Position numbers and translations under genes: made by a program
Origin: Streptosporangium minutum
GTDB taxonomy: Bacteria; Actinomycetota; Actinomycetes; Streptosporangiales; Streptosporangiaceae
Reading direction: 5' to 3'
NCBI RefSeq assembly: GCF_002149035.1
Contig: NZ_NGFP01000008.1
Location: 25,510 to 61,995 of the forward strand
Length of the DNA stretch: 36,486 bases
The notes under the pieces: model-generated
Databases searched by the model: none
What the model was told of the DNA's origin: nothing
The model's input: the letters and a program-made list of their open reading frames with translations, nothing else
Part shown: piece after piece, positions 2,211 through 23,392 of the stretch
Layout of the letters: every line of letters begins with the position of its first letter
How positions within the stretch are numbered: position 1 is the first letter of the stretch

Positions 2211-2246
2211 AATGAAGTGCCTCTCAACCCCCGCGAGGAGACGGCC

Positions 2247-4804
<2,558 letters not shown>

Positions 4805-4805
<1 letters not shown>

Positions 4806-7498: not shown

Positions 7499-7680
7499 CC
7501 TCACGGCCGGTCTCCCGGCACGTTCGGTGACTCGGCCGGTCTCCCGGCATGTTCACCACGATCCCCCGGCGTGCTCCTGACGGGTCTCCTGGCACGTTCG
7601 GTGACTCACGGCCGGTCTCCCGGCATGTTCACGAGGTCCTCCCGGCGTGCTTACGGCCGGTCTCCCGGTATGCCGGCCGC
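7499..7680. repeat. Degenerate repeats running into the TetR gene
   Basis: Several copies of GGCCGGTCTCCCGGCA with variable spacers (CGTTCGGTGACTC or TGTTCAC types) recur every 25-50 bp. The array overlaps the last 50 bases of the TetR reading frame, so the end of that protein is repeat-derived. Confidence 0.6.
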
Positions 7681-8309
7681 GGGGGCCGCGGTGTGTTCGC
7701 GGCCGCCGGTCCGGAAGAGTGGGCGAGTCCGGTCGTCAGCCAGCGCAGCGCCTCGGCGAACAGCTCGGACGGCACCGCGGCGCGGTCGACGCGGCGCTGC
7801 GTGACGAGCCCTTCGAAGAGCCCGATGATCGCGGTCGAGACGGCGACCGGGTCGTGCGTGGCGCAGTGCGGGGCCACCAGGCGGGCGACGGCCGTACGGG
7901 GAGCCCACCAGCGGGCGGCCAGACGGTCGAGCAATTCCGGCCGGGTCAGCGCGTAGCGCAGAAACTCCATTTCCAGTGTGCTCCATACCGTGTGGTGATC
8001 GGCGATCTCGGCCAGATACTCACCGAGCGCGACGAAAACGGTCTGGTCCTCCTCCCATTGGGAGGCGATTTCCTCGACGCCGTCAAGGCGGTGGGCGGCG
8101 TGCTCGTCGAAGAGAGTGAGGAACAGCTCATCTTTCCCGGTGAAATGGGAGTAGAGGGCGCCGACCGTGTGGCCCGCTCTGGAGGCGATCTCGTCGACGG
8201 AGGCTCCGGCGAAACCTTGTTCTGCGAAGACTTCGGCGGCCGCGGCCAGCAGGCGGTTGCGGGTGCGTGCCTTGGCTTGGCCGCGACTTAACCGCAAAGG
8301 CACCGACAT
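7629..8309 (-). CDS. TetR-family transcriptional regulator
   Basis: The 226-residue protein has the TetR N-terminal DNA-binding domain: about residues 14-60, with the helix-turn-helix in ASVDEIASRAGHTVGALYSHF. A helical ligand-binding domain follows. The ligand is unknown. The last 25 or so residues (AAANTPRPPRP onward) are proline- and arginine-rich and are encoded inside the flanking repeats, so the native protein may have been shorter. The ATG at 8309 lacks a clear ribosome site; GTG two codons later is an alternative. A perfect TTGACA and an imperfect palindrome just upstream suggest autorepression. The divergent neighbour is a small HTH protein, which may be a target. Confidence 0.8.
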   Translation of the reverse strand: MSVPLRLSRGQAKARTRNRLLAAAAEVFAEQGFAGASVDEIASRAGHTVGALYSHFTGKDELFLTLFDEHAAHRLDGVEEIASQWEEDQTVFVALGEYLAEIADHHTVWSTLEMEFLRYALTRPELLDRLAARWWAPRTAVARLVAPHCATHDPVAVSTAIIGLFEGLVTQRRVDRAAVPSELFAEALRWLTTGLAHSSGPAAANTPRPPRPAYRETGRKHAGRTS

Positions 8310-8801: not shown

Positions 8802-9854
8802 TCAGTCCGCGACCCGCACGCCGCCGGCGAAGGGCCGGTTGTCGATCGAGGCGATGTGGATGACGTCGCCGGTCTGGGGCGCGTGGACCATCAGTCCGGC
8901 GCCGATGTAGATGCCGACGTGGTGCAGGTCGTTGTAGAAGAAGACCAGATCACCCGGGCGCAGTTCGTCCCTGGAGATGTGGGTGCCCGCGGTCCACTGG
9001 TCACCGGTGTAGTGCGGCAGGCTGATGCCGACCTTCTGGTAGGCCCACATGACCAGGCCGGAGCAGTCGAAGGAGTTGGGGCCCTCGGCGCCCCAGACAT
9101 ACGGCTTGAGCTGCTGGGTGAGTGCCCAGCGGGCGGCCTCGGCGGCCTTGCCGCTGCCGACGATCGGCACGCTGATCTTCACCCGGCTGCCCCGGCTGTT
9201 GGACTTGGCCCGGCTGCGCACCTCGCTGAACAGGTTGCTCTCGACCTTGTCGACGAGCCGCTCGATCTTGGTGCGCTTGGTGCCGATCTCCGACAGGAGG
9301 TCCTTGACCTCGGCGGTCCGGGCCTTGGCGCTGGCCTGTGCCCGCTCGGCGGCCTCGATCGCCCGTGCGACCTGGGCGACCTCCTCGCTCTGCTGCTGCT
9401 GGAGGGCGTAGTTCGTGGTGGCCTGGTCGAGGAAGGTGTCGGGATCGGTCGGCTGGCTGAAGAGCATGGCGGAGCCCAGACCTCCCGACATGTAGGAGCT
9501 CTGCGCGAGGAGGCTGGCCTTGGTGCGCCGGGACGCCAGCTCGGACTCGCTGACGGCGAGGGTCTTCTTGGCGCTCGCGGCGGCGCGCTGCGCCTGCTTG
9601 AGCTTGACGCGCTCGCCGTTGTACTGCTCGGTGAGCGTCTCGATGTCGGTGTGCAGCTTCTCGACCTGCTTGGCGAGCTCCGGGAGGCTGGGCTCCGGGT
9701 CGGCGGTGGCCGCGACGAGAGGGGTGCCGAGGGTCAGGGTGGCGAAGGCCAGTCCGATGAACGCCATCCGGCGGGCGAGTCCACGCGGGGCGTGTTCTCG
9801 ATAGCGGGCATGTCTGCCCGCGTTCTTCCCTCCACGGTCACGCGTGCGCTTCAC
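8802..9854 (-). CDS. Secreted NlpC/P60 peptidoglycan hydrolase, RipA-like
   Basis: Probably cleaves peptide stems of peptidoglycan outside the cell. The 350-residue protein has a basic start, a signal segment at about 30-51 ending near AATA-DPEP, two long coiled-coil stretches (about 57-120 and 145-215), and a C-terminal NlpC/P60 domain. The catalytic set is visible as Cys264 (DCSGLV), His312 (LHHVGIYIG) and His324 (VHAPQTG). Coiled coil plus NlpC/P60 is the RipA-type design, in which the coil regulates the enzyme. GTG 9854 is chosen because GAGGAG lies 7 nt before it; TTG 9857 is one codon earlier. The leader holds a c-di-AMP riboswitch, so expression should follow that signal. Confidence 0.9.
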   Translation of the reverse strand: MKRTRDRGGKNAGRHARYREHAPRGLARRMAFIGLAFATLTLGTPLVAATADPEPSLPELAKQVEKLHTDIETLTEQYNGERVKLKQAQRAAASAKKTLAVSESELASRRTKASLLAQSSYMSGGLGSAMLFSQPTDPDTFLDQATTNYALQQQQSEEVAQVARAIEAAERAQASAKARTAEVKDLLSEIGTKRTKIERLVDKVESNLFSEVRSRAKSNSRGSRVKISVPIVGSGKAAEAARWALTQQLKPYVWGAEGPNSFDCSGLVMWAYQKVGISLPHYTGDQWTAGTHISRDELRPGDLVFFYNDLHHVGIYIGAGLMVHAPQTGDVIHIASIDNRPFAGGVRVAD

Positions 9855-9871
9855 CAACAGGCTCCTCTCTC

Positions 9872-10008
9872 GGCCGCCTACCGGGTTAGCTGACGGGTTC
9901 GGGCCGGAGGCAGCCCTACCGAGGGTGCTGGTGGCACCTCGGATTCACCCCAGGGGACTAAAGGGTGGGTCCCCGGTTCCCCGGGTCCGGGGATTCGGCG
10001 GTTCAGCG
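9872..10008 (-). promoter_or_regulatory. c-di-AMP riboswitch (ydaO-yuaA class)
   Basis: Read on the minus strand, the leader has the hallmark blocks of the ydaO-yuaA riboswitch in order: GCCGAATCC, GGGGACCCACCC, GGGGTGAATCC, GGTAGGGCTGCC, then CCCGAACCCGTCAGCTAACC and GGTAGGCGG. These blocks and their spacing match the class as I remember it. The class binds cyclic di-AMP and in actinobacteria commonly precedes cell-wall hydrolase genes; binding usually turns expression off. The element ends about 17 nt before the hydrolase start, so it could act on ribosome access or on termination. Confidence 0.88.
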
Positions 10009-10035
10009 CTTTAACGTCGCTGACATCGAGCACGG

Positions 10036-10065
10036 ACATTAGTGCAATTGGAGGTTCATGCTCAA
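10036..10065 (-). promoter_or_regulatory. Promoter of the riboswitch-hydrolase transcript
   Basis: Minus strand: TTGAGC (10060-10065), an 18-bp spacer and TAATGT (10036-10041). Transcription would start near 10029, about 20 nt before the riboswitch core, which is the right position. Confidence 0.55.
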
Positions 10066-10348
10066 CCAGAACTACAAACTCGGTAGAGCTTTCACAACCG
10101 GAATGTCACAGGAAGATCACGCATTTTCATGATCAACATGGGCATTAAGCTGGTTTTATGCGCCCTCGGCCTGCGGGAGGTGGAGGTCTTCGCAGCTCCG
10201 GGACCATGTGAAAGGCGAGATTTGCCCCGTTGTCGGCGCCCGCAGCCCAGTGTCAGGACTCGACTACCATCTGTCACCTGTTGGCCGTGGGGCACGAGTT
10301 AAGGGTGAGCCGTAATTCGCACGTCCCGAGGACGTACGCTGATCGGTT
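10066..10348. other. Intergenic stretch between riboswitch promoter and argA-like gene
   Basis: About 280 bp, somewhat less GC-rich than the genes. It holds the upstream edge of the minus-strand promoter and, at its right end, a possible leaderless promoter (TACGCT, 10335-10340) for the acetyltransferase. I see no gene or clear RNA structure in the middle. Confidence 0.4.
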
Positions 10349-10993
10349 ATGGAGCAGGTTGCGGAGCACTCCCCCACCCCGGCCGTTCGCGACACCGAGA
10401 TCGCGGGACGACGCGCCGTGGCCGGGGATGGGGGCGCGGACGTGGAACGGGATCCGCGGGACCGCCCGGCGGACGCGGCGGAGATCACGGTACGGCGGGC
10501 CCGCACCCCGGACGTGCGCGCCATCCGGCGGCTCGTCGACACCTACGGGGGAGCCGGCCCGCGCCTTCTGGAGAAGGCCACGGTCACCCTGTACGAGGAC
10601 ATCCAGGAATTCTGGGTGGCCGAGCGGGCGGGCGCCGTCGTGGGCTGCGGAGCGCTCCACGTGCTCTGGGAGGACCTCGCCGAGATCCGTACCGTCGCCG
10701 TCGACCCCGCCTGCCGGGGGCTGGGCATCGGCCACCGGATCGTCTCGGAGCTCATCCGCACCGCCGGCGGGCTCGGGCTCCGCCGGGTCTTCTGCCTCAC
10801 CTTCGAGGTCGATTTCTTCACCCGGCACGGCTTCCGTGAGATCCAGGGAACGCCCGTCTCACCGGAGGTCTACGCCGAACTTCTCGCCTCCTACGACGAG
10901 GGCGTCGCGGAGTTCCTCGACCTGGAGCACGTCAAGCCGAACACCTTGGGAAACACCCGGATGCTGCTCCACCTGACACGGGATCGCGACTGA
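10349..10993 (+). CDS. argA: Amino-acid N-acetyltransferase (GNAT), ArgA-like
   Basis: Likely acetylates L-glutamate with acetyl-CoA, the first step of arginine synthesis. The 214-residue protein is a single GNAT domain. RTVAVDPACRGLGIGHRIV holds the acetyl-CoA pyrophosphate loop (RGLGIG). LLEKATVTLYEDIQEFWVAE and FFTRHGF resemble the short actinobacterial N-acetylglutamate synthases typified by M. tuberculosis Rv2747. About 45 extra residues at the N-terminus look disordered, so the true start could be further in. ATG 10349 has no ribosome site but has TACGCT ending 8 nt before it, consistent with a leaderless message. No other arginine genes lie nearby. Another GNAT substrate cannot be excluded. 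Confidence 0.75.
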   Translation: MEQVAEHSPTPAVRDTEIAGRRAVAGDGGADVERDPRDRPADAAEITVRRARTPDVRAIRRLVDTYGGAGPRLLEKATVTLYEDIQEFWVAERAGAVVGCGALHVLWEDLAEIRTVAVDPACRGLGIGHRIVSELIRTAGGLGLRRVFCLTFEVDFFTRHGFREIQGTPVSPEVYAELLASYDEGVAEFLDLEHVKPNTLGNTRMLLHLTRDRD

Positions 10994-11116: not shown

Positions 11117-12538
11117 GTGAGCACCGGACAGCCGCCGTATCAGGATGATCCCGACCGCGATCGCACACCGTCGGGGCAGCCGGAGTACGGACAGCACAAT
11201 GCGGGTCGAGCCCCTGGCGAACATGACCCCGACATGACAATTGTGGGATATCGATCGGAGGCCTCACAGCCGCACACCGGTCCGGGCCAGACCCAGCCGG
11301 GTTACGGTCAGCAGCCGGGCTACGGCCAGCAGCAGGGGTACGGCCAGCAGGGGACCGGCGCCTACGGGCAGCAGCCGGCCTACGGCCAGCAGCCTTCCCA
11401 GGAGCAGTCCCCTTACGGTCAGCAGGCCTCTCAGGAGCAGTCGCCCTACGGCCAGCAGGCCTCCCAGCCGGGTTACGGTCAGCAGCCGGGCTACGGCCAG
11501 CAGCAGGGGTACGGGCAGCAGGGGACCGGTTCCTACGGGCAGCAGCCGGCCTACGGCCAGCAGCCTTCCCAGGAGCAGTCCCCCTACGGCCAGCAGGCCT
11601 CTCAGCCGGGCTATGGCCAGCAGCAGGGGTACGGCCAGCAGGGGACCGGTTCCTACAGCCAGCAGCCGGCCTACGGCCAGCAGCCTTCCCAGGAGCAGTC
11701 CCCTTACGGCCAGCAGGCCTCTCAGGAGCAGTCGCCCTACGGTCAGCAGTCCTCCCAGCCGGGTTACGGCCAGCAGCCCGGCTACGGTCAGCAGCAGGGG
11801 TACGGGCAGCAGGGGACCGGCGCCTACGGGCAGCAGCCGGCCTACGGCCAGCAGCCCTCCCAGGAGCAGTCCCCCTACGGCCAGCAGGCCTCTCAGCCGG
11901 GCTACGGCCAGCAGCAGGCGTACGGGCAGCAGCAGGCGTACGGCCAGCAGCAGGCGTACGGCCAGCAGGCCCCCGCCTACGGTCAGGGATACGCGCCGCA
12001 GGGCGCGATGCCCCCCGGTGTGCCTGCTCCGCTCGCGGAGTGGTGGCAGCGTCTGGTGGCCCGCATCCTCGACCTCCTGATCGTCGGCATCCCCGCGGGC
12101 ATCATCGGCTTCCTGGTCTCGCTGCCGTTCGTGCCGTCGTTCGATCCGGCCACCTACGCCGTCAGCGGCAACCTCTTCCTCTCGACGGCGGTGAACACGC
12201 TCATCGTCGGACTGGCCCTCATCGGCTACGAGATCTTCATGCTGGGGCGCAACGGCACCACGCTCGGCAAGCAGATCATGGGCATCAGGGTCGTCCGGCT
12301 GGGCGGCCAGCTCGCCGGCGGCGTCGACACGGTCAGCGCGGCCAAGCGGGCCCTCGTGCTGTTCGGCTCCTACATCATCAACGCGTTCGCCGGCTTCCTG
12401 GGTTTCCTCGGCCTGGTGGTGAATTTCGTGGTGGGAGTTTTCCTGCTGGTGGACGTGCTGTGGCCGTTGTGGGACAAGCCCCTGCAGCAGGCTCTGCACG
12501 ACAAGGTCGCCGGGACGGTCGTCGTCAAGACCAAGTAG
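11117..12538 (+). CDS. RDD-family membrane protein with long GYGQQ-repeat tail
   Basis: The 473-residue protein has two parts. Residues 1 to about 300 are low complexity; from residue 62 to about 292 they are almost entirely tandem GYGQQ/AYGQQ/SPYGQQ motifs with PSQEQ spacers. The last 170 residues are an RDD domain with hydrophobic segments near 318-340, 358-378, 415-435 and 436-455, and the family's basic-acidic motifs ([36 protein letters not shown]). RDD proteins are membrane proteins of mostly unknown role, some linked to ion transport. The tail should lie on one face of the membrane as a disordered, tyrosine- and glutamine-rich chain. GTG 11117 has GAGGTGA upstream. A strong terminator follows. 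Confidence 0.85.
11300..11990 (+). repeat. Nested in-frame tandem repeats coding GYGQQ motifs
   Basis: The basic unit is 15-18 bp (TACGGCCAGCAG core). It is arranged in four higher-order blocks of 57, 46, 51 and 46 codons that share the order GYGQQ, GTG(A/S)[19 protein letters not shown]. The blocks differ by loss of single units, the mark of slippage and unequal exchange. Copy number is likely to vary between strains. Confidence 0.9.
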
Positions 12539-14346: not shown

Positions 14347-14477
14347 GATGGAGGGTGAACGCCCTGCTCTCGGGGAACGTCTTCTGCATAGAGCGGTCGC
14401 CGGGTCGGGGCTACCATGCGGGATGACAGGGCCCGGACATCCCGGACCTGCCTGACCGCTCTGTGAGGAGCGACGAG

Positions 14478-16985
14478 ATGTTCGAGAGGTTCACCGACCG
14501 CGCACGGCGGGTTGTCGTCCTGGCTCAAGAAGAGGCCCGGATGCTCAACCACAACTACATCGGTACGGAGCACATCCTTCTTGGTCTGATCCACGAAGGT
14601 GAAGGCGTTGCCGCCAAGGCTCTGGAGAGCCTCGGCATCAGTCTTGAAGGTGTGCGTCAGCAGGTCGAGGAGATCATCGGCCAGGGACAGTCTGCGCCGT
14701 CGGGGCACATTCCCTTCACCCCGCGCGCGAAGAAGGTCCTTGAGCTGTCGCTCCGCGAGGCCTTGCAGCTGGGACACAACTACATCGGCACCGAGCACAT
14801 CCTGCTCGGCCTCATCCGTGAGGGCGAGGGCGTCGCCGCCCAGGTGCTGGTGAAGCTGGGCGCGGATCTCAACCGCGTGCGGCAGCAGGTCATCCAGTTG
14901 CTCCACGGCTACCAGGGCAAGGAGCCGGCCGCCGCGGGCGGTCCGCAGGAGGCCGCGCCGTCGACCTCCCTTGTGCTGGACCAGTTCGGCCGCAACCTGA
15001 CACAGGCCGCCCGCGAGGGCAAGCTCGACCCGGTCATCGGCCGGGAGAAGGAGATCGAGCGGGTCATGCAGGTCCTCTCCAGGAGGACCAAGAACAACCC
15101 TGTTCTGGTGGGTGAGCCCGGCGTCGGCAAGACCGCCGTCGTCGAAGGCCTGTCCCAGAAGATCGTCAAGGGCGAGGTCCCGGAGACGCTCAAGGACAAG
15201 CAGCTCTACACCCTGGACCTGGGCGCGCTGGTGGCGGGCTCCCGCTACCGCGGTGACTTCGAGGAGCGCCTGAAGAAGGTGCTCAAGGAGATCCGCACCC
15301 GCGGTGACATCATCCTGTTCATCGACGAGCTCCACACGCTCGTCGGCGCGGGTGCCGCCGAGGGCGCGATCGACGCCGCCAGCATCCTCAAGCCGATGCT
15401 GGCCCGCGGTGAGCTGCAGACCATCGGGGCGACCACCCTCGACGAGTACCGCAAGCACCTGGAGAAGGACGCCGCGCTCGAGCGCCGCTTCCAGCCGATC
15501 CAGGTGGCCGAGCCCAGCCTCAGCCACACGATCGAGATCCTCAAGGGCCTGCGCGACCGTTACGAGGCGCACCACCGGGTCTCCATCACCGACGGCGCTC
15601 TCGTGGCCGCCGCGCAGCTCGCCGACCGCTACATCAGCGACCGGTTCCTGCCCGACAAGGCGATCGACCTCATCGACGAGGCCGGCTCGCGCATGCGCAT
15701 CCGTCGCATGACCGCGCCGCCGGACCTGCGCGAGTACGACGAGAAGATCGCCAACGTGCGGCGCGACAAGGAGTCCGCGATCGACGCGCAGGACTTCGAG
15801 AAGGCCGCCGCGCTGCGCGACCAGGAGAAGCAGCTCCAGCTCAAGCGCGAGCGCCGTGAGAAGGAGTGGAAGGCCGGCGACATGGACGTCGTCGCCGAGG
15901 TCACCGAGGAGCTCATCGCCGAGGTCCTCGCCACGGCCACCGGCATCCCGGTCTTCAAGCTCACCGAGGAGGAGTCCCAGCGACTGCTCCGCATGGAGGA
16001 CGAGCTGCACAAGCGGATCATCGGCCAGGACGACGCCATCAAGGGTCTGTCCCGCTCGATCCGCCGTACGCGCGCCGGTCTGAAGGACCCGCGCCGTCCG
16101 GGTGGCTCGTTCATCTTCGCCGGTCCGTCCGGTGTCGGTAAGACCGAGCTCTCCAAGGCGCTGGCCGAGTTCCTGTTCGGGGACGAGGACGCGCTGATCA
16201 TGCTGGACATGTCCGAGTTCATGGAGAAGCACACCGTCTCCCGGCTCTTCGGCTCTCCTCCCGGCTACGTCGGATACGAGGAGGGCGGCCAGCTCACCGA
16301 GAAGGTGCGGCGCAAGCCGTTCTCCGTGGTCCTCTTCGACGAGATCGAGAAGGCCCACCCGGACATCTTCAACTCGCTGCTGCAGATCCTGGAGGACGGT
16401 CGCCTGACCGACGCCCAGGGCCGCGTGGTGGACTTCAAGAACACCGTCATCATCATGACGACCAACCTCGGCACCCGGGACATCTCCAAGGGGCAGGGCG
16501 TCGGGTTCGCGAAGTCCAACGACACCGAGTCGAACTACGACCGGATGAAGTCCAAGGTCCAGGAGGAGCTCAAGCAGCACTTCCGGCCCGAGTTCCTCAA
16601 CCGTGTCGACGACATCGTGGTCTTCCACCAGCTCACGCCGAAGGAGATCATCAAGATCGTGGACCTGATGCTCGCGCAGGTGGGCGAGCGTCTGAAGGAC
16701 CGCGACATGGGTCTGGAGGTCACGCAGGAGGCCAAGCAGCTGCTGGCCGACCGCGGCTACGACCCGGTGATGGGCGCCCGTCCGCTCCGCCGCACCATCC
16801 AGCGCGAGCTGGAGGACTCGCTGTCGGAGAAGATCCTGTACGGCGAGCTCCGTCCCGGTCAGATCGTCAAGATCAGCATCGAGGGCGAGGGCGACAACGC
16901 GAAGTTCGTCTTCGTGGGTGAGTCCGCGCCGGCCGACCAGGTTCCGGACTCGGCGGCCGCCATCGCGGAGCCGATCCAGAACTAG
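14478..16985 (+). CDS. clpC: ATP-dependent Clp protease ATP-binding subunit ClpC
   Basis: A hexameric AAA+ unfoldase that feeds proteins into ClpP. The 835 residues show the full ClpC layout: double Clp-N repeat (1-145, each with [14 protein letters not shown] or its counterpart), first AAA+ module with Walker A GEPGVGKT at 212-219 and Walker [10 protein letters not shown], a UVR/middle coiled coil (about 415-455), and a second AAA+ module with Walker A GPSGVGKT at 549-556 and [13 protein letters not shown] 14478 has TGAGGAG 7 nt upstream; a GTG five codons earlier overlaps that site and is rejected. In actinobacteria ClpC is usually essential. The upstream stress promoter and ClgR-like box suggest induction by proteotoxic or thiol stress. 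Confidence 0.97.
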
Positions 16986-18313: not shown

Positions 18314-19279
18314 TCACCCCGGAAGGCGGTAGGTGCCGTCGTCGAGGACCTCGGCCAGGCCGTCGGCGATCAGTCCGTCGAGGGCGCGCTCCCGCTGCGG
18401 GGCGATGTCCCAGACCACGTCGAGGGCGTCTTTGGGGACGGGGCCGTGGGCCTGGCGCAGGACGGACAGGAGGCGGCCGCGGCACTGGCGGTCGGTGCCG
18501 GCGTAGGTCTGGCCCTTGCGGGCGGGGCCGTCGTAGGCCGGCTTGCCGGCCAGGCGCCAGGCGCACAGGTCGCCGATCGGGCAGTCGGCGCACCGGGGGG
18601 CGCGTGCCGTGCAGACCAGGGCGCCCAGTTCCATGACGGCGACCGCCCAGACGGGGGCGTCGTCGGCGCCGGGGAGCAGCGACTCGGCGAGCCGGCGCTC
18701 GGCGGACGTGGTGGCCTTCGGGGGATACTCCTCGCCCCGTACGGCCCGCGCCAGGACCCGGCGGACGTTGGTGTCGAGAACGGCATGGCGGCCCTTGAAG
18801 GCGAAACTGGCCACCGCGGCCGCGGTGTATTCGCCGATGCCGGGGAGTGTCAGCAGGGTGGCGTGGTCGGAGGGGACCTCGCCGCCGTGGTGGTCGGTGA
18901 TCGCCCGTGCGCAGGCGTGCAGGTTGAGGGCGCGGCGCGGGTAGCCCAGACGCCCCCAGTGGCGTACGGCCTCACCGGGGGGCTCCTCGGCGAGCGCGGC
19001 GGCCGTGGGCCAGCGTTCCATCCACTCGGTCCAGACGGGCAGCACCCGGATCACCGGTGTCTGCTGCAGCATGATCTCGCTGACCAGGATCGACCAGGGG
19101 GAGGCGCCGGGGGCGCGCCAGGGGAGATCGCGGGCGCTCTCGGCATACCAGTCGAGAACGGGTTCCAACAGGAGGTTCGACTCGGGCACCTCTCGACGAT
19201 AGTGCCGGTCCGGAGCCCTTCCCTCCTCTTCGGCGGCCGAAACGGCGGGGGTAGCGGCGGGTCGTCCCTCATCACTCAT
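18314..19279 (-). CDS. mutY: A/G-specific adenine glycosylase
   Basis: Removes adenine mispaired with 8-oxoguanine, preventing G-to-T changes. The 321-residue protein has the glycosylase core: SEIMLQQT with catalytic Glu68, helix-hairpin-helix LPGIGEYTAAAVASFAF (145-161) and catalytic Asp169 (VLDTNVRRVL). The 4Fe-4S cluster cysteines are C223, C230, C233 and C239 (C-x6-C-x2-C-x5-C). The C-terminal Nudix-like 8-oxoG recognition domain of E. coli MutY appears shortened. The first 30 residues look disordered, and ATG 19279 lacks a ribosome site; a GTG at residue 31 is an alternative. It faces the next gene across only 22 bp, so the promoters must overlap. Confidence 0.93.
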   Translation of the reverse strand: MSDEGRPAATPAVSAAEEEGRAPDRHYRREVPESNLLLEPVLDWYAESARDLPWRAPGASPWSILVSEIMLQQTPVIRVLPVWTEWMERWPTAAALAEEPPGEAVRHWGRLGYPRRALNLHACARAITDHHGGEVPSDHATLLTLPGIGEYTAAAVASFAFKGRHAVLDTNVRRVLARAVRGEEYPPKATTSAERRLAESLLPGADDAPVWAVAVMELGALVCTARAPRCADCPIGDLCAWRLAGKPAYDGPARKGQTYAGTDRQCRGRLLSVLRQAHGPVPKDALDVVWDIAPQRERALDGLIADGLAEVLDDGTYRLPG

Positions 19280-19301
19280 GAGGAATCTTCATACTGTGTG
19301 T

Positions 19302-19967
19302 ATGGACCCGGACACTTTCCGTAGCGATATAGGGGTGGACGTCTACTGGCGGCGTCGGATGGCCGCGCTCGTCGGTGTGCTCGTGGTGGTCGCCGTCGTG
19401 GCCTGGGCCTGCTCGTCGAGTGGGCCGGAGGACACGTCGAAGGTGCAGGCCCAGCTCGGCGGGTCGCCCACGCCGGATCCGATGGTGACCGTGCTGCCCA
19501 CGGTGACGGTCACTCCCTCGCCGAGCCCGACGACGACTCCCGGGGCGGCCAAGGCGGCCGCCGGGACCAAGCGGCCCGGCGACGCCTGCGAGTCTCCTGA
19601 CCTCGTGCTGAACATGCAGGGCCAGGGCGACGTCTACGCGCCGGGAAACCGGCCCCGGTTCATCCTGACGCTGGTGAACATCGGCAAGGTGATGTGCACG
19701 GCCGACGTCGGACCCCGGGCGATGGAGGTCCGCATCACCTCCGGCAGCGACCGGGTCTGGTCGTCGGCCGACTGCGTCAGCGGCGAGACCGACGACATCC
19801 GCAAGCTCGACCGCGGCATCCCGTACGTCCGGGAGATCGAGTGGGACCGCCGCCGGTCCGGCGGCGACTGCGCGGCAGAGCCTGACGCCGCCCTGGCGGG
19901 CACCTACGTGGCAGTGGTCCGCGGTCCCGGCCTGAAGAGCCGCAGGACCGTCTTCCATCTCCGCTAG
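19302..19967 (+). CDS. Membrane-anchored exported protein of unknown function
   Basis: A 221-residue protein. A short cytosolic start is followed by one hydrophobic helix (about 20-37, AALVGVLVVVAVVAWAC). A Thr/Pro/Ser-rich linker (about 50-85) comes next, then a domain of about 125 residues with beta-strand pattern and several cysteines (ACESP, VMCTA, ADCVS, GDCAA) that could form disulfides outside the cell. The helix is not a proper lipobox. I do not recognise the family. ATG 19302 has CATACT ending 6 nt before it and no Shine-Dalgarno, so a leaderless message is likely. It is divergent from mutY at very short distance. The last codons are part of a 32-bp tandem duplication. Confidence 0.7.
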   Translation: MDPDTFRSDIGVDVYWRRRMAALVGVLVVVAVVAWACSSSGPEDTSKVQAQLGGSPTPDPMVTVLPTVTVTPSPSPTTTPGAAKAAAGTKRPGDACESPDLVLNMQGQGDVYAPGNRPRFILTLVNIGKVMCTADVGPRAMEVRITSGSDRVWSSADCVSGETDDIRKLDRGIPYVREIEWDRRRSGGDCAAEPDAALAGTYVAVVRGPGLKSRRTVFHLR

Positions 19968-20392: not shown

Positions 20393-21454
20393 ATGCTGTC
20401 CGAGACGGTGTTCCGGAGTGATGACGTGCCTGCGGCGGATCGGTTCGAGCAGTGGCGTGATCTCATCAATCAGGCGCACGCGCCCATGGAGATGTCCAGC
20501 GATTACCGGGAGGATTTCCGGGCCTCCCAGCATCTGCTGGATCTCGGCCCCGTTTCCGTATGGCGGACGGCCTTCCAGCCCCTGTGCTGTCGCCGGACCC
20601 CGAAGCTGATCCGGCAGTCCGATCCCGAAGGGGTGCACTTGTCGCTGCCCACGAACGGTCCTCTCGTGACCGTCCGTGAAGATCACGAGATCGTGTACGG
20701 GCCATATGACCTGTGTGTTCACGACACCTCGCAGCCTACCGATTTACACGCGGGTGACTTCTCCGACCTGCATACGGGCGTGGCGCTTGAGATTCCCAAG
20801 GCGTTGCTGCACCTGCCCGGGAACACGCTCGAGAAGCTGACCACGCGCCAGCTGCCGGTGCGGGAGGGCTTCGGCGCCCTGCTGGCCCATTTCCTCACCC
20901 ATTTGACGGAAGGAGCCGGCTCGTACCAGCCGTCCGACGGGCTGCGGCTGGGGACGGTCGCGGTCGACCTCGTGTCCGCGTTGTTCGCCCGCACCCTGGA
21001 GGCCGACGACATCCTCCCGCCGGAAACCCACCGACGGACCCTGATCCTGCGCATTCACGCCTTCATCGAGCTCAACCTCGCCGACCGCGCTCTGACGCCG
21101 GCCGTTATCGCGACCCATCACCACATATCCGTCCGCTACCTGCAGCTCCTCTTCCAGCAGCAGGACAAGACCGTGATGGGCTGGATCCGCCGGCGACGCC
21201 TCGAACGGTGCCGCGAGGACCTCGCCGACCCCTCCCTGCGCGGTCACTCGATCCGTGCCGTCGCCCTGCGGAGGGGCTTCGCCACCTCCGCCGACTTCAG
21301 CCGCGCGTTCCGTTCCGCGTACGGCATGTCTCCTTCGGAATACCGCCATGCGGCACGCGCCGGTGATCGGAGTGCGATCCCGCCGGCGAACGCCTTGGAC
21401 ACCACGCCGCCGACGGTCCTGAACAACGGCGGACACCTCTCTCCGGATATGTGA
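20393..21454 (+). CDS. AraC-family transcriptional regulator
   Basis: The 353-residue protein has an N-terminal sensor-like domain (about 1-200) that begins with the FRSDDVPAADRFEQWRDLI pattern of AraC-binding-like regulators. The C-terminal AraC/XylS DNA-binding domain (about 225-318) has two helix-turn-helices: one around HHISVRYLQLLFQQQ and one in SIRAVALRRGFATSADFSRA, ending FRSAYGMSPSEYR. A polar tail of about 35 residues follows. The ligand is unknown. ATG 20393 has an excellent AAGGAG site. The next gene, 206 bp downstream in the same direction, codes a small secreted protein and is a plausible target. Confidence 0.88.
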   Translation: MLSETVFRSDDVPAADRFEQWRDLINQAHAPMEMSSDYREDFRASQHLLDLGPVSVWRTAFQPLCCRRTPKLIRQSDPEGVHLSLPTNGPLVTVREDHEIVYGPYDLCVHDTSQPTDLHAGDFSDLHTGVALEIPKALLHLPGNTLEKLTTRQLPVREGFGALLAHFLTHLTEGAGSYQPSDGLRLGTVAVDLVSALFARTLEADDILPPETHRRTLILRIHAFIELNLADRALTPAVIATHHHISVRYLQLLFQQQDKTVMGWIRRRRLERCREDLADPSLRGHSIRAVALRRGFATSADFSRAFRSAYGMSPSEYRHAARAGDRSAIPPANALDTTPPTVLNNGGHLSPDM

Positions 21455-21660
21455 GGAGGAAAGTCAAGGCGGCGGCGCCGCACTCCTCCCGAGCGGATGA
21501 CGGCCGGCGCCGGACCCCCGTGTGCGCTCATCGCCAAGGAACACTGCGCGCCGTGGTAAAGACTTCCGTGATCGGTCACCGGAATACTGAACCGGTCGGA
21601 TCGCAATGGGTGGATTTGACACCGCACGTTTCCGTGAACTTCTTAGCAAAGGGGAAAGAA

Positions 21661-21993
21661 ATGAAGCGGACCCTCAAACAATGGGGCGCCCTCGGCGCCG
21701 CGGCCGTATCGCTGGCAGGGGTCATGGTCGTCGCAGGCGGGACGACGTCGGCGCATGCGGACACCCGGTGCACCTGGGGATGGATCAAGATCAACGACAG
21801 TGCCGGCGGAGATCCCATCAGCGATGCCCGCGGTCACTCCCACAGCAGCGGCAACCATTACGTCCGCGATTACGGGCGGGATGCCAACTCGGGGATGTAC
21901 ATATGGAACTGGTGGGCGGACAACGACGGCGGGTCGGACGGTGACACGTCGGACACCTACTTCGGGTCGCGCTGGTGCAGTAACGCCCCCTGA
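21661..21993 (+). CDS. Small secreted protein of unknown function
   Basis: The 110-residue precursor has a classical Sec signal: basic start MKRTLKQW, hydrophobic core GAAAVSLAGVMVVAGG, and cleavage after AHA near residue 33. The mature part of about 77 residues is rich in Gly, Asp, Asn, Trp and Ser and has just two cysteines, one near each end (CTWGWIK and WCSNAP), which probably form one disulfide. I do not recognise a family. ATG 21661 follows AAAGGGGAAAGAA. The AraC regulator upstream may control it. Confidence 0.75.
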   Translation: MKRTLKQWGALGAAAVSLAGVMVVAGGTTSAHADTRCTWGWIKINDSAGGDPISDARGHSHSSGNHYVRDYGRDANSGMYIWNWWADNDGGSDGDTSDTYFGSRWCSNAP

Positions 21994-22306: not shown

Positions 22307-23392
22307 TCAGACGTAGCGCTCCAGGATGGAGGACTCGGCCAGCCGGGAGAGGCCCTCACGGATGTGGCGGGCCCTGGCCTCGCCGACCCCGCCCACCTCC
22401 TGCAGGTCGCCGATGCTGGCGGCCAGGAGTTTCTGCAGGCTGCCGAACTGGTCGACCAGCCGGTCGACCACCGTGCCCGGGAGGCGGGGGACCTTGGCCA
22501 GCAGGCGGTAGCCCCGGGGGCTCACCGGGCTGTCCAGGGCGTCGTTGCCCGAGTGGCCGAGGACCTGGGCGACGACGGAGAGGTCGAGCAGGTCGCTGGA
22601 GGACAGCTCGTCGAGATCGTGCAGGGCCTCGGCGAACTTGCGGGGACGACGGCCCGCCATCGGCAGGTAGTCGCGCACGATCAGCTCGCGGTCGGTCTCG
22701 GTCCCGGCCACCAGCTCGTCGAACTGCAGGGACAGCAGACGGCCGTCGGTGCCGAGCTCGACGACGTAGCCGGCGATCTCCTCGGAGATGCGCCGGACCA
22801 TCTCCAGGCGCTGGGCGACCACCGCGATGTCGCGGACCGTGACCAGGTCCTCGATCTCCAGCGCCGACAGCGTGCCGGAGACCTCGTCCAGGCGGAGCTT
22901 GTAGCGCTCAAGGGTGGCCAGGGCCTGGTTGGCCCTGGAGAGGATCGCCGCCGACTCCTCCAGCACGTAGCGGAAGCCGTCCAGGTAGAGGGCGATGATC
23001 CGCATGGACTTGCTGAGGGAGATGACGGGCACGGACGTCTGCACGGCCACTCGCTGGGCGGTGCGGTGCCGGGTGCCCGACTCGTCGGTGGGGATGGACG
23101 GGTCGGGCATCAGGTGCACGGCCGCGCGCACGATCCTGAGGTCGCCCGCGTTCAACACGATGGCACCGTCCATCTTGGCGAGCTCACGCAGCCGCGTCGC
23201 GGAGAACTCGACGTCCAGCTCGAAGCCGCCGCTGCAGATCTCCTCGACCGTGCTGTCGTGGCCGAGGACGATCAGACCGCCTGTGTGGCCGCGAAGGATG
23301 CGTTCCAGGCCGTCGCGGAGCGCGGTGCCCGGAGCGACCGCGGCGAGGACGGCCCTGCGGCGCTCGTCGAGCCCTTTGTAGTTTGCTGGCAC
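22307..23392 (-). CDS. disA: DNA integrity scanning diadenylate cyclase
   Basis: Makes cyclic di-AMP from two ATP and lowers activity when bound to branched DNA. The 361-residue length is typical. The N-terminal DAC domain carries the active-site motifs DGA (75-77) and RHR (108-110, in GTRHRTAQ). A helical spine follows, and the C-terminal helix-hairpin-helix DNA-binding part ends with [22 protein letters not shown] 23392 has GGGGG just upstream; an ATG four bases earlier is out of frame. It lies 79 bp downstream of radA in the same direction, the classic radA-disA pair, in which RadA can modulate DisA. It should supply the ligand of the riboswitch at 9872-10008. Confidence 0.96.

What the first reader, a model, noticed from the sequence alone, without database searches (positions are those of the whole stretch)
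8802..10065. c-di-AMP riboswitch on a RipA-like hydrolase, with disA in the same window
The leader of the NlpC/P60 gene carries the ordered sequence blocks of the ydaO-yuaA riboswitch and its own promoter (10036-10065). DisA, which makes the ligand, is encoded at 22307-23392. This gives a short loop from DNA-integrity sensing to peptidoglycan cleavage. The riboswitch class is known; the link to this hydrolase here is read from sequence.
Basis: partly seen in the sequence, partly recalled or inferred. Interest (0 to 1): 0.6.

Follow-up and report, generated by a model that had tools for sequence, protein, structure and literature searches.

The report
c-di-AMP riboswitch on wall hydrolase gene
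A soil bacterium carries a known kind of RNA sensor for the signal molecule c-di-AMP directly in front of a gene for a cell-wall-cutting enzyme; this arrangement is already described in related bacteria, but relatives of this gene suggest how the sensor covers the ribosome's docking site and that it can decay when the signal-making enzyme is lost.

Summary
The leader 10010-9860 (minus strand) is a full-length RF00379 c-di-AMP (ydaO/yuaA) riboswitch (90.7 bits, cutoff 38, E 3.3e-20), followed by an SD and a GTG start (9854) of an NlpC/P60 hydrolase, nearer to RipC than to RipA. The promoter block 10065-10036 is conserved (57 of 58 orthologues at fixed spacing). disA lies 12.5 kb away and holds the only DAC-domain match in this Streptosporangium genome, which has six such switches. 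Switch-plus-hydrolase pairs are published for Streptomyces and Corynebacterium, so this is a new member of a known kind. Added here: the aptamer's loop-to-tail pairing covaries across 126 actinomycete leaders, and its 3' strand overlaps or abuts the SD, favouring translational OFF control. Switches track disA in 80 family genomes (47 of 47 with disA; 3 of 33 without). One relative without disA keeps the hydrolase with a decayed aptamer. Closeness to disA is conserved gene order, not evidence of a dedicated circuit. A DNA-integrity input is untested; published Streptomyces work ties c-di-AMP to osmotic stress.

The parts
10036..10065 (-). promoter: -35-like TTGAGC (10065-10060), 18-nt spacer, -10-like TAATGT (10041-10036)
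   Evidence: sequence; conserved block in alignment A2; both boxes at <=3 mismatches in 58 of 58 orthologue upstream regions, at fixed spacing in 57 of 58; not found by the strict sigma-70 scan
9860..10010 (-). c-di-AMP (ydaO/yuaA) riboswitch aptamer, RF00379
   Evidence: cmscan 90.7 bits, E 3.3e-20; conserved in 51 of 58 orthologue leaders by a two-block motif test
9906..9910 (-). hairpin-loop block CCTCC, 5' strand of the proposed pseudoknot
   Evidence: loop-tail complementarity covaries over 126 leaders; register here is ambiguous and only 4 Watson-Crick pairs (CCTC with GAGG, or CTCC with GGAG)
9862..9869 (-). GAGAGGAG: Shine-Dalgarno (GAGGAG 9867-9862) and 3' strand of the proposed pseudoknot (GAGG 9867-9864 or GGAG 9865-9862)
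8802..9854 (-). NlpC/P60 peptidoglycan hydrolase, RipC-like (350 aa, GTG start): N-terminal part that aligns weakly with the N-terminal half of 8idc_E, plus C-terminal NlpC/P60 domain
22307..23392 (-). disA, diadenylate cyclase (DAC, DisA-linker, HhH), likely ligand source
   Evidence: only DAC-domain match in the genome
23472..24872 (-). radA-like gene next to disA
   Evidence: LapB zinc ribbon, RecA/KaiC-like ATPase and ChlI-type matches; the name radA is by domain make-up and position

Best explanation
A c-di-AMP OFF riboswitch that controls translation of a RipC-like peptidoglycan hydrolase. Shown: the aptamer, promoter, SD and gene anatomy; that the pairing between the aptamer's hairpin loop and its 3' tail is under constraint across actinomycetes; that the tail strand overlaps or abuts the SD. 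Inferred: with enough c-di-AMP the aptamer folds, the pseudoknot forms and covers GAGAGGAG, so ribosomes cannot start; when c-di-AMP falls, the SD is freed and more hydrolase is made. DisA is the likely sole ligand source and serves six switches in this genome, so the signal is global (cell-wall and osmotic state at least), not a private link between two neighbouring genes.
For: Aptamer. No terminator-like site in 9700-10200, and the start codon begins 6 nt beyond the last aptamer base. Pairing: over 126 leaders (120 from the class sample, 6 own) mean loop-tail duplex energy -9.45 against -7.90+-0.16 when tails are permuted, 0 of 5000; 111 distinct leaders -9.33 against -7.88+-0.18, 0 of 10000; tails permuted only within a genome (26 genomes, 76 leaders) -9.19 against -8.62+-0.18, 5 of 10000. 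The printed sequence of the crystallised ydaO RNA has a complementary loop and tail (CUCCUUCG/CGAAGGAG, my reading), and the paper describes a pseudoknot (PMC5393176, passages). SD: 104 of 126 leaders have an SD-like 4-mer, a start codon and an open frame within 45 nt of P1, against 281 of 4000 random places; in 112 leaders with start, SD and a run of 4+ pairs, the paired strand overlaps the SD by 2+ nt in 48 and ends within 5 nt 5' of it in 54, leaving 10. A hairpin inserted between P1 and SD in ten leaders leaves GGAGAGGAG in place. disA link: in the family sample 47 of 47 DisA+ genomes have a switch, 3 of 33 DisA- (my tally). Decayed aptamer in a genome without a DAC-domain match. Precedent: C. 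glutamicum nlpC switch acts on translation (PMC9960051, passages).
Against: Folding does not show the ON state: the unconstrained leader (-93.0) is more stable than the aptamer-constrained one (-81.4, without pseudoknot or ligand), and it also pairs much of the SD. The window's own pairing is short (4 Watson-Crick pairs against a mean longest run of 5.37). For Streptomyces rpfA, c-di-AMP-dependent transcription termination was reported (PMC10117811), and in C. glutamicum the switch sequence lowered transcript whatever the c-di-AMP level (PMC9960051). Five of 58 orthologues lack a complete aptamer (L032, L035, L042, L044, L045), although sampled genomes of this kind (G121, G183, G144, G192) have DisA, so the control is dispensable. 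The switch/disA association has exceptions: G127, G153, G187 (family sample) and G047, G067, G098 (class sample) have switches but no DisA found, and 7 genomes of family f19 have DisA but no switch found. Searches of over 40 genomes use stricter Infernal filters that lose weak matches.
Confidence: 0.72

Rival explanations
1. Same OFF riboswitch, but acting on transcription: c-di-AMP binding causes early termination (intrinsic-like or Rho-assisted) in or just after the aptamer, as reported for Streptomyces rpfA.
For: Published for rpfA: c-di-AMP-dependent premature termination, and five-fold more rpfA transcript in a S. venezuelae disA mutant (review PMC10117811, passages).
Against: No terminator-like site in 9700-10200; the start codon begins 6 nt beyond the aptamer; 104 of 126 leaders have SD and start close behind P1; c-di-AMP changed protein but not transcript for the C. 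glutamicum nlpC switch (PMC9960051).
Confidence: 0.2
2. A relic or non-responsive aptamer: the sequence is kept by recent descent but does not regulate.
For: Five of 58 orthologues lack a complete aptamer and keep the promoter boxes (two of them aligned), so the gene can live without it.
Against: Full-length 90.7-bit match; 51 of 58 orthologues keep both core blocks at 57-99% protein identity; in a genome without disA the same element has visibly decayed, which suggests that it erodes when not used.
Confidence: 0.05
3. A dedicated disA-hydrolase circuit: the two genes are neighbours because they form one DNA-damage-to-wall module.
For: All 26 family genomes with both genes on one contig have them 8.8-19 kb apart.
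Against: 18 further hydrolase rows (16 genomes) have disA on another contig and say nothing. radA, mutY, clpC, GNAT and other neighbours keep the same order in G156, which has no disA, so the whole neighbourhood is conserved. Five other switches lie elsewhere in the genome. The genes lie 12.5 kb apart with several genes on the other strand between them, such as 10349-10993, 11117-12538 and 14463-16985.
Confidence: 0.05

Closest known systems
C. glutamicum nlpC (cg2402) ydaO/kimA-type riboswitch (PMC9960051, passages read)
   Same: ydaO-type switch before an NlpC/P60 peptidase gene; no canonical terminator; OFF switch, likely translational; authors propose a CTCC block pairing with the RBS GGAG
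   Different: There the gene leads a seven-gene operon; here the next minus-strand gene with a family match (TetR type, 7629-8309) starts about 490 bp further on. Orthology of the two hydrolases was not tested.
Streptomyces rpfA and the other riboswitch-linked hydrolases of S. coelicolor, S. venezuelae and S. lividans (PMC10117811, PMC11481543, PMC8079986, passages read)
   Same: Several such switches per genome, on genes for secreted or wall hydrolases; OFF sign for rpfA; published hypothesis that low c-di-AMP raises these hydrolases
   Different: rpfA control was reported as transcription termination. The nine Streptomyces and one Kitasatospora homologues found here (33-39% identity, L065-L074) show no strict core motif within 500 nt upstream of the match, though L065 has aptamer-like pieces.
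Crystallised ydaO aptamer (RNA-Puzzle 12, 4QLM/4QLN; PMC5393176, passages read)
   Same: Same core blocks and a loop/3'-tail pairing
   Different: In the actinomycete leaders the 3' strand of this pairing overlaps or abuts the SD
8idc_E, 'Probable endopeptidase MT2245' (RipC, name recalled)
   Same: N-terminal half (i-E 0.0021) and NlpC/P60 domain (93.6 bits) both align
   Different: Scores far under the NCBIfam RipC cutoff (145 against 425)

Membership tests
RF00379 c-di-AMP riboswitch | covariance-model score at or above gathering over the full model | tested here: met
   90.7 bits against 38, positions 1-134
RF00379 c-di-AMP riboswitch | loop to 3'-tail pseudoknot of the aptamer | tested here: inconclusive
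   pairing covaries over 126 leaders as a set; in this leader only 4 Watson-Crick pairs, register ambiguous
RF00379 c-di-AMP riboswitch | binds c-di-AMP | not testable with these tools
   needs in-line probing or ITC
RF00379 c-di-AMP riboswitch | changes expression of the downstream gene | not testable with these tools
   needs reporter or mRNA/protein data
NlpC/P60 hydrolase | PF00877 domain with Cys-His-His catalytic residues | tested here: met
   98.9 bits; FDCSGL, HHVGIY and VHAP segments visible in the alignment; which residues are catalytic is recalled
RipC (NF038345) | score above the NCBIfam cutoff | tested here: not met
   145.3 against 425: RipC-like, not filed as RipC
RipA (NF033741) | score above the NCBIfam cutoff | tested here: not met
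   84.3 against 625
DisA | DAC domain, DisA linker and HhH domain | tested here: met
   single DAC match in the genome

The most novel reading that the evidence does not exclude
Across actinomycetes the c-di-AMP riboswitch needs no separate expression platform: the conserved pseudoknot of the ligand domain is itself the repressing helix, because its 3' strand is, or directly adjoins, the Shine-Dalgarno. Lineages can even insert a hairpin between P1 and that strand without breaking the arrangement, and the element decays when disA is lost while the hydrolase gene stays.
Probability: 0.5. Interest if true: 0.5.

Novelty: new member of a known kind. Interest (0 to 1): 0.32.

Why it matters
It extends the c-di-AMP/hydrolase link from Streptomyces and Corynebacterium to Streptosporangium and relatives, and gives comparative support for a translational mechanism that had been proposed for single genes. 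It also offers natural experiments: a relative without disA and with a decayed switch, and Acrocarpospora species with the aptamer missing but promoter and SD kept. These make it testable what the control is for.

Tried and rejected
RNA folding as proof of the switch: inconclusive, since the unconstrained fold also occludes part of the SD. Strict sigma-70 promoter scan: no site; conservation was used in its place. Paper search for 'c-di-AMP riboswitch' with translation, Shine-Dalgarno and Actinobacteria: 0 papers; c-di-AMP, riboswitch and Streptosporangium: 0. Whether the pseudoknot-SD overlap, or switch decay after disA loss, is in print was searched only through and 61 of the open-licence library (listings seen, a few papers read in passages). 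For the overlap I saw the C. glutamicum proposal and a statement that the S. coelicolor switch seems to block the RBS, cited to Haiser 2009 and Block 2010 (PMC8079986). Haiser 2009, Nelson 2013 and Block 2010 are not held and were not read. A dedicated disA-hydrolase module was considered and dropped. Pfam named one of the four other switch-linked proteins of this genome that were tested.

Limits of the counts. The start-codon picker put the start more than 100 nt away in 25 of 126 leaders; searches use a rule limited to the 45 nt behind P1. With CTG allowed that rule finds a start in 122 of 126; the four without are L117, L122, L169 and L002. The motif test is not a covariance model; two of its seven 'NO' rows (L025, L058) keep a CAGCTGAC core. 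The 58 orthologues are those of the 72 loci at 57% identity or more over most of the protein; 14 loci were left out (L061, L062, L065-L074, L076, L077; L077 matches 57% over 96 residues only). The ten hairpin-insertion leaders were picked by eye. Class tally: RF+DisA+ 87, RF+DisA- 4, RF-DisA+ 7, RF-DisA- 20 of 118 (my tally). Genomes are related and no tree was built, so the Fisher values (3.5e-13 for the class, 6e-19 for the family sample) overstate the independent evidence.

Full report
WHAT WAS CHECKED. A cmscan of the whole window with Rfam 15 gives one match at gathering score: RF00379, c-di-AMP riboswitch, 10010-9860 on the minus strand, full model, 90.7 bits against a cutoff of 38, E 3.3e-20. 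The match ends at 9860; the SD GAGGAG is 9867-9862 and GTG starts at 9854. The gene (8802-9854) has an NlpC/P60 domain at its C terminus. Both its N-terminal part (weakly, i-E 0.0021) and its catalytic domain align with chain 8idc_E, named 'Probable endopeptidase MT2245' (that this is RipC of M. tuberculosis is recalled). NCBIfam ranks RipC over RipA, both under their cutoffs, so 'RipC-like' fits better than 'RipA-like'. DisA at 22307-23392 is confirmed.

WHERE IT IS. The hydrolase is 99% identical to one in Streptosporangium canum. The genome (9.58 Mb, 548 contigs) holds six RF00379 matches, this one third by score, and one DAC-domain match, DisA. So DisA is the likely only source of c-di-AMP and serves several switches. 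Of the other five switches, L005 precedes an NlpC/P60 protein. L004 precedes a 324-aa protein without a Pfam match, whose start looks like a coiled coil by eye. L001 and L006 are cut by contig ends. L002 precedes a short ORF and then a secreted-looking protein without a Pfam match.

CONSERVATION OF THE LEADER. I took as orthologues the 58 of the 72 loci that have 57-99% identity over most of the protein. Both promoter boxes are found upstream in 58 of 58 at up to 3 mismatches per 13 bases, and at one spacing (18 or 19 bases start to start) in 57 of 58; both boxes, at any spacing, occur in 48 of 2000 random stretches of the same length from these loci, the true sites included. Two core blocks of the aptamer at proper spacing are found in 51 of 58. 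Of the seven others, L025 and L058 keep a CAGCTGAC core. Five show no complete aptamer: L032 and L045 (Sinosporangium) and L035, L042, L044 (Acrocarpospora); L032 and L035 keep pieces of it. In L042 and L044 the promoter runs almost directly into the SD. Genomes with such leaders (G121, G183, G144, G192) have DisA. So the control is usual but dispensable.

HOW IT PROBABLY WORKS. I used 126 leaders: 120 of the listed RF00379 places of a 118-genome class sample (301 matches in all; fetched, from 63 genomes) and the six of this genome. The CAGCT[ACG]AC core occurs in 126 of 126. The hairpin loop and the 3' tail after P1 are complementary: mean duplex energy -9.45 against -7.90+-0.16 for permuted tails (0 of 5000 permutations as low), mean longest Watson-Crick run 5.37 against 4.54+-0.08 (0 of 5000). 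The result holds for 111 distinct leaders (0 of 10000) and, more weakly, when tails are exchanged only within a genome (-9.19 against -8.62+-0.18, 5 of 10000). The printed sequence of the crystallised ydaO RNA shows the same kind of pairing, by my reading, and the paper describes a pseudoknot (PMC5393176, passages). The tail is where translation starts: 104 of 126 leaders have an SD-like 4-mer, a start codon and an open frame within 45 nt of P1, against 281 of 4000 random places. In the 112 leaders with start, SD and at least 4 pairs, the paired tail strand overlaps the SD by 2 nt or more in 48, ends within 5 nt 5' of it in 54, and does neither in 10. In the window the strand is inside the SD (GAGG 9867-9864 with CCTC 9910-9907, or GGAG 9865-9862 with CTCC 9909-9906). 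Against this simple picture, nested folding alone prefers a different fold that also hides part of the SD, so folding does not show which state is ON.

WHAT THE SWITCHES CONTROL. Of 120 proteins read behind 126 switches, 71 match the window's NlpC/P60 domain by blastp at E <= 1e-3 and 30 match both its halves; 114 of 120 have a hydrophobic run in the first 70 residues. The rest were not scanned as a set against Pfam; M23-, LysM- and Rpf-like endings are visible in some (by eye, recalled motifs).

A TELLING VARIANT. In ten leaders picked by eye (nine with the core intact, one decayed) a hairpin of about 60 nt lies between P1 and the SD, while GGAGAGGAG stays 3' of it. Four of its nine consensus pairs show standard pairs that differ on both sides (columns 13-69, 14-68, 16-66, 17-65), but 14-68 has three non-pairing cells, 10-72 two and 17-65 one. 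This fits a tail strand that must be held near the aptamer by a helix; a neutral stable insertion would look much the same.

LINK TO disA. In 80 genomes of the family, 47 have DisA at E <= 1e-70 and all 47 have at least one RF00379 match; of 33 without DisA, 3 have one (G127 with 4, G153 with 2, G187 with 1; my tally). A DisA search at E <= 0.001 (which had no positive control) and a DAC search (with positives) found nothing in these three. In the class sample the counts are 87 with both, 4 switch only, 7 DisA only (all family f19) and 20 neither (my tally). One of the four, G084, has a DAC fragment. Five DisA-negative family genomes keep the hydrolase: G127, with a switch at its start, and G156, G157, G162, G146, with no RF00379 match in the genome. 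G146's leader is cut by the contig end. G157 (459 nt held) and G162 show no aptamer core in their leaders. G156 is a single contig, 99% complete, without a DAC-domain match. There radA is followed directly by the homologue of window 19278-19967, then mutY, clpC and the rest in order; disA and the window ORFs at 20393-21993 find no match in that stretch. Its hydrolase leader still aligns with the aptamers of relatives, but the core CAGCTAACCC reads CGCGAACC with two bases missing, GTGAATCC reads GTGGATCG and TAGGG reads TGCGG. RF00379 does not match it at E <= 1. This is the pattern expected if the switch is kept only while c-di-AMP is made; it is one case, and relatedness among genomes was not corrected for.

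THE NEIGHBOURHOOD. The hydrolase and disA lie 8.8-19 kb apart in all 26 family genomes that have both on one contig; 18 further hydrolase rows have disA on another contig and say nothing. G156 shows that the other genes keep order without disA, so closeness is not evidence for a circuit.

WHAT IS KNOWN. S. coelicolor and S. venezuelae have seven and six hydrolases with such switches, with rpfA the only one tested and turned down by c-di-AMP (PMC10117811, passages). S. lividans has six predicted (PMC8079986, passages). The idea that low c-di-AMP raises these hydrolases and weakens the wall is published (PMC11481543, passages). C. glutamicum nlpC has a likely translational OFF switch, and its authors propose CTCC-GGAG pairing at the RBS (PMC9960051, passages). 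So the class, the target type and the outline of the mechanism are known. New here, as far as my few searches reach, are this set of orthologues, the covariation and SD statistics, the hairpin-insertion variant and the decayed switch in a genome without disA.

VERDICT. Observation confirmed; interpretation partly supported; a new member of a known kind. Steps shown: anatomy, conservation, pairing constraint, co-occurrence. Steps inferred: ligand binding here, OFF sign here, translational level, physiological input.

Noticed in passing
L005, L163, L180, L184, L198, L147 (downstream of the riboswitch): Six switch-linked ORFs with NlpC/P60 similarity (194-214 aa, four genomes incl. the window's own) have no ATG, GTG or TTG at the start; a CTG after the SD is the best candidate. 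L006 looks alike but is cut by the contig end and has an upstream ATG.
   Followed up: partly
L002 (own genome C11), just after the riboswitch: An 18-codon ATG ORF with its SD in the switch tail precedes a secreted-looking ORF about 220 nt further on; a possible leader peptide or frame error.
   Followed up: no
window 2217-4805 (+): One 862-aa ORF joins FAD-binding/succinate-dehydrogenase-type domains (NadB-like) and both quinolinate phosphoribosyltransferase domains (NadC-like): it looks like a nadB-nadC fusion.
   Followed up: no
window 10085-10120 (-), upstream of the promoter: Conserved GTGATC..GTGAC..GTTGTGAA-like block in the alignment of 16 leaders, also in the two without the aptamer; a possible regulator site.
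   Followed up: no
class sample, family f19 (G019, G041, G059, G075, G090, G102, G113): Seven genomes with DisA but no RF00379 match found: lost or divergent switches, or matches lost to the stricter filters.
   Followed up: no
G127:C101 and G047, G098: Genomes with riboswitches but no DisA or DAC domain found; assembly gap, recent loss or another ligand source.
   Followed up: partly
G163: Thirteen RF00379 matches in one genome, the most in the family sample of 80.
   Followed up: no
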